Source: Hirudinaria manillensis (lineage: Eukaryota > Annelida > Clitellata > Hirudinida > Hirudinidae). Taken from it: a DNA stretch of 64,000 bases. Of the stretch, positions 22,035-54,703 are shown in pieces (positions within the stretch are counted from its first letter, which is position 1; every line of letters begins with the position of its first letter). The notes under the pieces were generated by a model. The model had not been told where the DNA came from. It saw nothing but the letters and a program-made list of their open reading frames with translations, and searched no databases. The stretch spans positions 7,701,778 through 7,765,777 of the forward strand of contig CM067538.1 of NCBI GenBank assembly GCA_034509925.1. Direction: 5' to 3'. The position numbers were made by a program, and so were the translations under genes.

Positions 22035-23222
22035 TCATTTCCTGAATATTTTCGATTTCAATACCAACTGCTCCAGGGAGCGATAGTTAGATGTTAATTG
22101 GGTGTACAATCTTTTGACGAGACTGTCTTTGGAGTTTTTCTTCTGCAAGAAAAAGATAAATAAAAGGTAGTTTTTCTTTCTCCTTCCTTCTTTTTAATTT
22201 TTTTTTAGATCTCGAAGTTGAAATTGAATGAATGGCCGCTAACATACCTGGAAATCATCAGCCGGCCTCCTGGCGAGGAAGAATTTTCCGGCCGTGGGCA
22301 TAGGATCGTCGTCGTCCAATTTTTTCCTTATTAAGAAGGACAGTTGTTGACTGGAACTAGCACTTGGACACTCCTCGAACAATGCAAACAGCAACGCGTC
22401 CTCTGGCGGCCAATTCAGACAACTCATGACCTGGCGAAAGAGCTCATTAAATTCATTAATTAATGCAACGGATTTCTCTTCAATGAGAAATAAAGATTTC
22501 CATGTTTTTAAAAAAATCTTTTTTAATTAGTACGATGTTTGGTTGATAGTTTTAATTTGGAGCTACAACCTGCCCGATGACATTACGGACAGAACTGCTG
22601 CTAGACAAGATTTGGACGTTGACTCGCTCCGGTGTATTGAAATCTGATACCATATCGTCATCAAAATAAATGGCCACATCTGAGCATTCTTGTTTTGAAA
22701 TTGAAAATCGTTGACTGCCCATCGTACCACTACTCTGAGGTTCCTGCCAAAAAATAAAATAAAAATAAAAATAATCGTTTGTTTCAAAGATGAGAATTTG
22801 TTCCCAATGACTGACCCAGTTTTCATATTTTTTCATGAAAAATCTGCTACTAGTTTTCCTGAAGAATCGACTCCCAGCAAGAACTTTTTCATCGTTGTCG
22901 AGGAAGAGACACATTCCAGGGCCAAAAATTGTTTTGTCAAAGTCGAGATTCTTCATGGCAACTTCTTCGATCAGACCGTAACAATTGTTGTCATGCGGAT
23001 CGGTGGATTTGGCTTGGATTAAAACCTAAGTTTAAAAATTTAAAAAAATTCCATTACTTTATGAAGTATTAATTTATCTGATTGGTAAAATAAAATATCT
23101 ATTCTGGCGAGGACCTGTTTGATAACATCTTTTACAGTTGTGTCGTCGTCCACTTTTAAAACGTAGCATTCGTCCTTGTGGTTTACGAAGCAGACTCTTT
23201 CGACGCGTTCGTTCGATGTCGG
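22035..23222 (-). other. Two Ras-association domains and C-terminus (exons 41-45)
   Basis: Exons 23115-23222, 22816-23025, 22570-22743, 22248-22430 and 22035-22142. RA1: [40 protein letters not shown] and [11 protein letters not shown]2: [31 protein letters not shown] and [20 protein letters not shown]. The protein ends in a basic helical tail ([12 protein letters not shown]). RA domains bind GTP-loaded Ras or Rap. Confidence 0.85.

Positions 23223-54703: not shown

What the first reader, a model, noticed from the sequence alone, without database searches (positions are those of the whole stretch)
22035..54703. A 45-exon, about 4,400-residue PLC epsilon with scaffold-type N-terminal modules
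Seen: 45 exons with consensus splice sites join in one frame over 13,269 nt, exactly divisible by three. Known: PLC epsilon has CDC25, PH, EF, X, Y, C2 and RA domains and is about 1,900-2,300 aa. Inference: here the same gene continues upstream into FERM-, REM-, armadillo- and ankyrin-like modules, nearly doubling its length. A single protein linking Ras/Rap exchange, lipid hydrolysis and a talin-like PTB would be a notable architecture.
Basis: partly seen in the sequence, partly recalled or inferred. Interest (0 to 1): 0.88.

Follow-up and report, generated by a model that had tools for sequence, protein, structure and literature searches.

The report
Long PLC-epsilon with talin-like FERM module
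A real animal gene encodes one very long phospholipase C epsilon whose extra front half (ankyrin, armadillo and talin-like modules) looks strange next to the human enzyme but is shared by molluscs, worms, ticks, insects and nematodes in public databases.

Summary
The gene is real. My own gene finder, given no homologues, joins one minus-strand gene from 54674 to 22035 at its strictest intron cost (score 1116; plus strand 8, reversed sequence 50, 0 in 5 of 5 simulations). REM is weak, RA2 unproved. Three protein searches returned 110 clusters: 32 hold ankyrin, armadillo, FERM, CDC25 and the PLC EF-X block in one chain (one ends in the EF part), 15 more all but ankyrin. The 32 come from molluscs, a nemertean, arthropods, nematodes (C. 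elegans, 3,487 aa) and rotifers. So this is the long protostome form of PLC epsilon, already in databases, not special to this genome. Shorter and split models exist, so isoforms are likely. I found no paper describing this half in the open-access library; a 2026 review says the mammalian N terminus lacks homology to other proteins. A hemichordate relative keeps the FERM; two lamprey proteins do not.

The parts
22035..54674 (-).
53213..54674 (-). exon 1 of model: ankyrin repeats (residues about 177-425); the stretch before them resembles homologues only weakly
   Evidence: Pfam Ank E 1.9e-08; ANK block 44% to Lineus, E 1.6e-14, leading block E 1.1; E 0.009-0.016 to three bivalves
43050..45392 (-). 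armadillo-like block 1 (residues about 632-770), two exons
   Evidence: 29% to Lineus block; fold of homologue P0085
41215..42288 (-). armadillo-like block 2 (residues about 1000-1215), most conserved N-terminal part
   Evidence: 58% to Lineus; 31 hits; profile to Vac8 E 0.0019; only place found in own genome
39103..40845 (-). two REM-like halves (40845-40711 and 39285-39103) separated by a long low-conservation insert, in one exon 39100-41046
   Evidence: 46% and 30% to Lineus; SOS1 only E 0.087; no Pfam hit
37686..38968 (-). FERM F2 and F3, talin-like
   Evidence: Pfam FERM_M E 3e-07; homologue profile to talin E 1.2e-16
36312..37397 (-). RasGEF / CDC25 domain
   Evidence: Pfam RasGEF E 6.9e-19; SOS2 E 3e-05
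35207..36082 (-). region homologous to the PH region of relatives (23% to Lineus)
   Evidence: E 3.5e-07; tblastn E 6.3e-08 to Owenia; PH named by position only
33091..34005 (-). EF-hand region by alignment to relatives
   Evidence: block EFX, 44% to Lineus together with X
30586..32993 (-). PLC X domain with catalytic motifs; contains the GC-AG intron 32894-31384
   Evidence: Pfam PI-PLC-X E 2.4e-57; 6pmp PLC epsilon E 4e-100
25531..26339 (-). PLC Y domain, second half of barrel
   Evidence: 60% to Lineus; exons read
23520..25078 (-). C2 domain and following stretch
   Evidence: Pfam C2 E 1.5e-08; 48% to Lineus
22843..23222 (-). RA1 domain
   Evidence: 36% to Lineus block, E 2.5e-05
22035..22743 (-). 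C-terminal exons where RA2 is expected; not recognised by sequence
   Evidence: no match to the Lineus RA2 block even at E 10; stop at 22035

Best explanation
The locus is a PLC epsilon gene (long protostome form) of a lophotrochozoan animal, probably annelid-like. Shown by sequence: one reading frame across 45 exons runs ankyrin, armadillo fold, REM-like segment, talin-like FERM F2-F3, CDC25, PH region, EF region, PLC X/Y, C2, RA1, in the same order as in other protostomes, and the PLC catalytic motifs are kept. Inferred: the protein is a membrane-recruited relay. The ankyrin and armadillo parts bind partner proteins, the talin-like F2-F3 binds membrane phosphoinositides and perhaps receptor tails, the CDC25 domain loads Rap1 with GTP, Rap1 and Ras hold the enzyme through RA domains, and the X/Y barrel cuts phosphoinositide to give IP3 or IP2 and diacylglycerol. 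Alternative starts probably also give shorter forms that begin near the armadillo or FERM exons.
Against: No transcript data were available. 25 of 110 clusters are models with FERM, CDC25 and PLC but no armadillo, 34 hold the armadillo without CDC25 and PLC (25 armadillo alone, 7 with ankyrin, 2 with FERM), and one has ankyrin to CDC25 only. Some carry 'isoform X2' names, and three pairs share a species and a contig length (P0085/P0033, P0093/P0046, P0096/P0077), so annotators split the gene or real short products exist. The split points differ between those pairs, which favours annotation error. REM and RA2 are not demonstrated; the REM profile does not reach C. elegans (E 0.16). The window copy is a long branch. 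The partner-binding and relay steps are untested.
Confidence: 0.88

Rival explanations
1. Two neighbouring same-strand genes: an upstream ankyrin-armadillo scaffold gene and a downstream FERM-CDC25-PLC gene, joined only by gene prediction.
For: Gene finders tend to fuse neighbours; separate models exist in some species (34 of 110 clusters hold armadillo without CDC25 and PLC, 25 hold FERM to PLC without armadillo); introns of 1,387 and 3,644 bp lie between the ankyrin and armadillo exons and one of 1,927 bp inside armadillo block 1.
Against: 47 of 110 clusters carry armadillo and the PLC EF-X block (one only its EF part) in one chain, across several phyla; the introns from armadillo block 2 to PH are at most 193 bp; split points of three split models disagree.
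Confidence: 0.06
2. One gene with several promoters, where the main product is a short FERM-CDC25-PLC form and the full 4,400-residue form is rare.
For: Short isoform-labelled models without armadillo in crustaceans, a spider, a scorpion and a katydid; the Mytilus X3 model starts inside X2 at residue 483, after its ankyrin block, 154-349; long upstream introns.
Against: No expression data; 32 of 110 clusters are ankyrin-to-PLC models.
Confidence: 0.4
3. A chance or pseudogene-like chain of open frames.
For: A few weak donors (46354, 26283) and one GC-AG intron.
Against: Finder controls of 8, 50 and 0 against 1116; conserved blocks at 23-60% identity to Lineus in order; no internal stop.
Confidence: 0.01

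Closest known systems
Long protostome PLC epsilon models (Mercenaria LOC123546334, Lineus LOC135489776, C. elegans 3,487-aa phosphoinositide phospholipase C)
   Same: Same modules in the same order in one chain
   Different: Window copy is longer (4,373 against 3,487-3,685 aa for these three) and more diverged; RA2 not recognisable; the REM-like part is not recognised in C. elegans
Vertebrate PLC epsilon 1 (lamprey models; 6pmp; mammalian enzyme in PMC13022664)
   Same: CDC25, PH, EF-X, Y, C2 blocks in order in lamprey; strong PLC match to 6pmp
   Different: No FERM, REM-like or armadillo signal in two lamprey proteins; review describes an N terminus without homology to other proteins
Talin head F2-F3
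   Same: Profile match E 1.2e-16 over both lobes; a tryptophan aligned to the talin one that contacts integrin tails (role recalled) is present in 7 of 8 aligned homologues and in the window
   Different: No F1 recognised and no talin rod; sits before a CDC25 domain
Son of sevenless REM-CDC25
   Same: Best PDB kin of the CDC25 part, weak REM resemblance
   Different: REM-like halves split by a long insert and separated from CDC25 by the FERM

Membership tests
PLC epsilon | PLC X/Y barrel with catalytic motifs, closest to epsilon among PLCs | tested here: met
   PDB best hits are PLC epsilon, 4e-100 against 1.4e-63 for the next type; [40 protein letters not shown] present; residue roles recalled from PLC delta
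PLC epsilon | N-terminal CDC25 domain | tested here: met
   Pfam RasGEF E 6.9e-19, same chain
PLC epsilon | C2 domain after the Y half | tested here: met
   Pfam C2 E 1.5e-08; C2 of PLC epsilon aligned
PLC epsilon | PH and EF-hand domains between CDC25 and X | tested here: inconclusive
   regions homologous to those of relatives in place (PH block E 3.5e-07; EFX block), but Pfam named neither in the window pieces nor PH in P0004 and P0009
PLC epsilon | two RA domains | tested here: inconclusive
   RA1 36% to Lineus, E 2.5e-05; RA2 no match
PLC epsilon | exchange activity on Rap1 | not testable with these tools
   needs assay
Long protostome PLC epsilon | ankyrin, armadillo and FERM upstream of CDC25 in one chain, same order | tested here: met
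   a single transcript was not tested
FERM (talin type) | F2 helical and F3 PTB-like lobes | tested here: met
   Pfam FERM_M in the window; profile of 8 homologues to talin F2-F3; window matches that profile, E 3.8e-52
FERM (talin type) | F1 ubiquitin-like lobe | tested here: inconclusive
   no FERM_N match listed
Armadillo fold | right-handed helical repeat | tested here: met
REM domain of RasGEFs | match to RasGEF_N | tested here: inconclusive
   no Pfam hit with 3 joined pieces; SOS1 E 0.087, no better than an unrelated entry at 0.08

The most novel reading that the evidence does not exclude
Outside vertebrates PLC epsilon is an adhesion-coupled signalling scaffold: its talin-like F2-F3 binds beta-integrin-type tails or membrane phosphoinositides next to the Rap1 exchange domain, so one chain can sense adhesion, switch on Rap1 and make IP3. 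The FERM part is at least as old as the protostome-deuterostome ancestor and was lost on the vertebrate line, leaving the unexplained N terminus of the mammalian enzyme.
Probability: 0.2. Interest if true: 0.75.

Novelty: new member of a known kind. Interest (0 to 1): 0.42.

Why it matters
Structural work on PLC epsilon, as reviewed in PMC13022664 (passages), concerns the mammalian enzyme, whose N terminus is said to share no homology with other proteins. The protostome form shows recognisable modules there, above all a talin-like FERM lobe pair beside the Rap1 exchange domain, found also in a hemichordate protein. That gives a concrete, testable idea for why PLC epsilon acts in C. elegans epidermal morphogenesis and in the spermatheca (PMC2274882 and PMC3650001; abstract starts and passages), and a hint that vertebrates lost an adhesion link.

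Tried and rejected

Literature: ten searches in the open-access library; no paper was seen to describe ankyrin, armadillo or FERM modules of PLC epsilon. I saw listings, and passages of PMC2274882, PMC3650001, PMC13022664, PMC8163975 and PMC4766154; in the last two the FERM mentions concern other proteins. Subscription papers are not held, so this is no proof that it is unpublished.

Full report
What is there. The minus strand between 54674 and 22035 holds one spliced gene. A finder that I wrote (frame-specific Markov coding model, generic splice matrices, self-trained on this locus) returned one 40-exon gene without any homology at intron cost -11; looser settings added small exons and ran on to 19080. 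At cost -11 the plus strand scored 8.3, the reversed sequence 50.2 and five simulated sequences 0, against 1116 for the gene. After comparison with homologues I fixed a model of 45 exons, 13,122 nt and 4,373 residues with one terminal stop. Of its 44 introns 43 are GT-AG; the intron inside the X domain (32894-31384) is best read as GC-AG, because the alternative inserts 13 residues into a stretch that runs through in the aligned PLC epsilon. The donors at 46354 and 26283 are weak and the exon 46355-46499 is an asparagine repeat, so the exact exon count is uncertain by a few.

Relatives. Three protein searches returned 31 of 397, 73 of 6,743 and 31 of 1,947 candidates, 110 distinct clusters in all. 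By block comparison (E below 0.001 to Lineus blocks) 32 hold ankyrin, armadillo, FERM, CDC25 and EF-X, one of which (P0024) ends in the EF part; 15 hold all but ankyrin; 25 hold FERM, CDC25 and EF-X; 25 hold armadillo alone; 7 ankyrin and armadillo; 3 CDC25 and EF-X; 2 armadillo and FERM; 1 ankyrin to CDC25. Of 74 sequences with at least six blocks (the window model among them) none breaks the order. Named sources of the 110 include bivalves, gastropods, annelids, a nemertean, scorpion, ticks, spiders, insects, crustaceans, nematodes and rotifers. A hemichordate protein (Glandiceps, P0061) has F2-F3 (profile E 7e-46) without armadillo; the two lamprey proteins have neither. So the architecture is the long protostome PLC epsilon, and the FERM is probably older.

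One gene or two. From armadillo block 2 to PH the 15 introns are 72-193 bp, which leaves little room for a gene end and a promoter. Armadillo and PLC lie in one chain in 47 of 110 clusters (P0024 with the EF part only). Against this, many models are short or split. Three split pairs of one species each have equal contig lengths and are split at different places (armadillo/REM, armadillo/F3, F2/CDC25), which suggests annotation breaks; other short models carry isoform names, which suggests real alternative starts. The ankyrin exon lies apart from the armadillo exons behind introns of 1,387 and 3,644 bp, and a Mytilus model starts after its ankyrin block. Transcripts were not available.

How it probably works. 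Known for mammals (passages of PMC13022664): the CDC25 domain is specific for Rap1A, RA2 binds Ras, and the barrel cuts PIP2 or PI4P. From this anatomy I infer that in protostomes the same relay is docked by a scaffold half: ankyrin and armadillo for partners, F2-F3 for membrane lipid or receptor tails. The order FERM then CDC25 would place Rap1 exchange at the docking site. None of these functional steps is shown here.

Verdict. What remains interesting is that this half was not found described in the library searched, and that it puts a talin-like module beside a Rap1 exchange factor.

Noticed in passing
window 2126-2857 minus: An open frame holds an exon of a Mo25/CAB39-like gene (Pfam Mo25 E 2.3e-21); a long GGAT repeat lies in the same stretch, 2303-2639.
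   Followed up: partly
window 9079-9714 plus: An open frame carries the end of an NTF2 domain (E 7e-10), so another gene probably lies on the plus strand near 9 kb.
   Followed up: partly
window 63412-63900 plus: An open frame with a weak, below cut-off match to TMEM154 (E 3.2e-05) beside low-complexity repeats; possibly spurious.
   Followed up: no
window 32894-31384 minus: GC-AG intron inside the LYSQ-VLMQG stretch of the PLC X domain.
   Followed up: partly
window 27447-27691: Intronic GTGA array of 61 copies at 97% matches within the X-Y linker part of the gene.
   Followed up: no
window 46355-46499 minus: Asparagine-rich exon made from a TTG-type repeat with a weak donor; may be an artefact of the gene finder.
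   Followed up: partly
own genome, contigs C3, C4, C5, C7, C9, C11: Other PLC X-domain exons occur on six further contigs, presumably the other PLC types.
   Followed up: no
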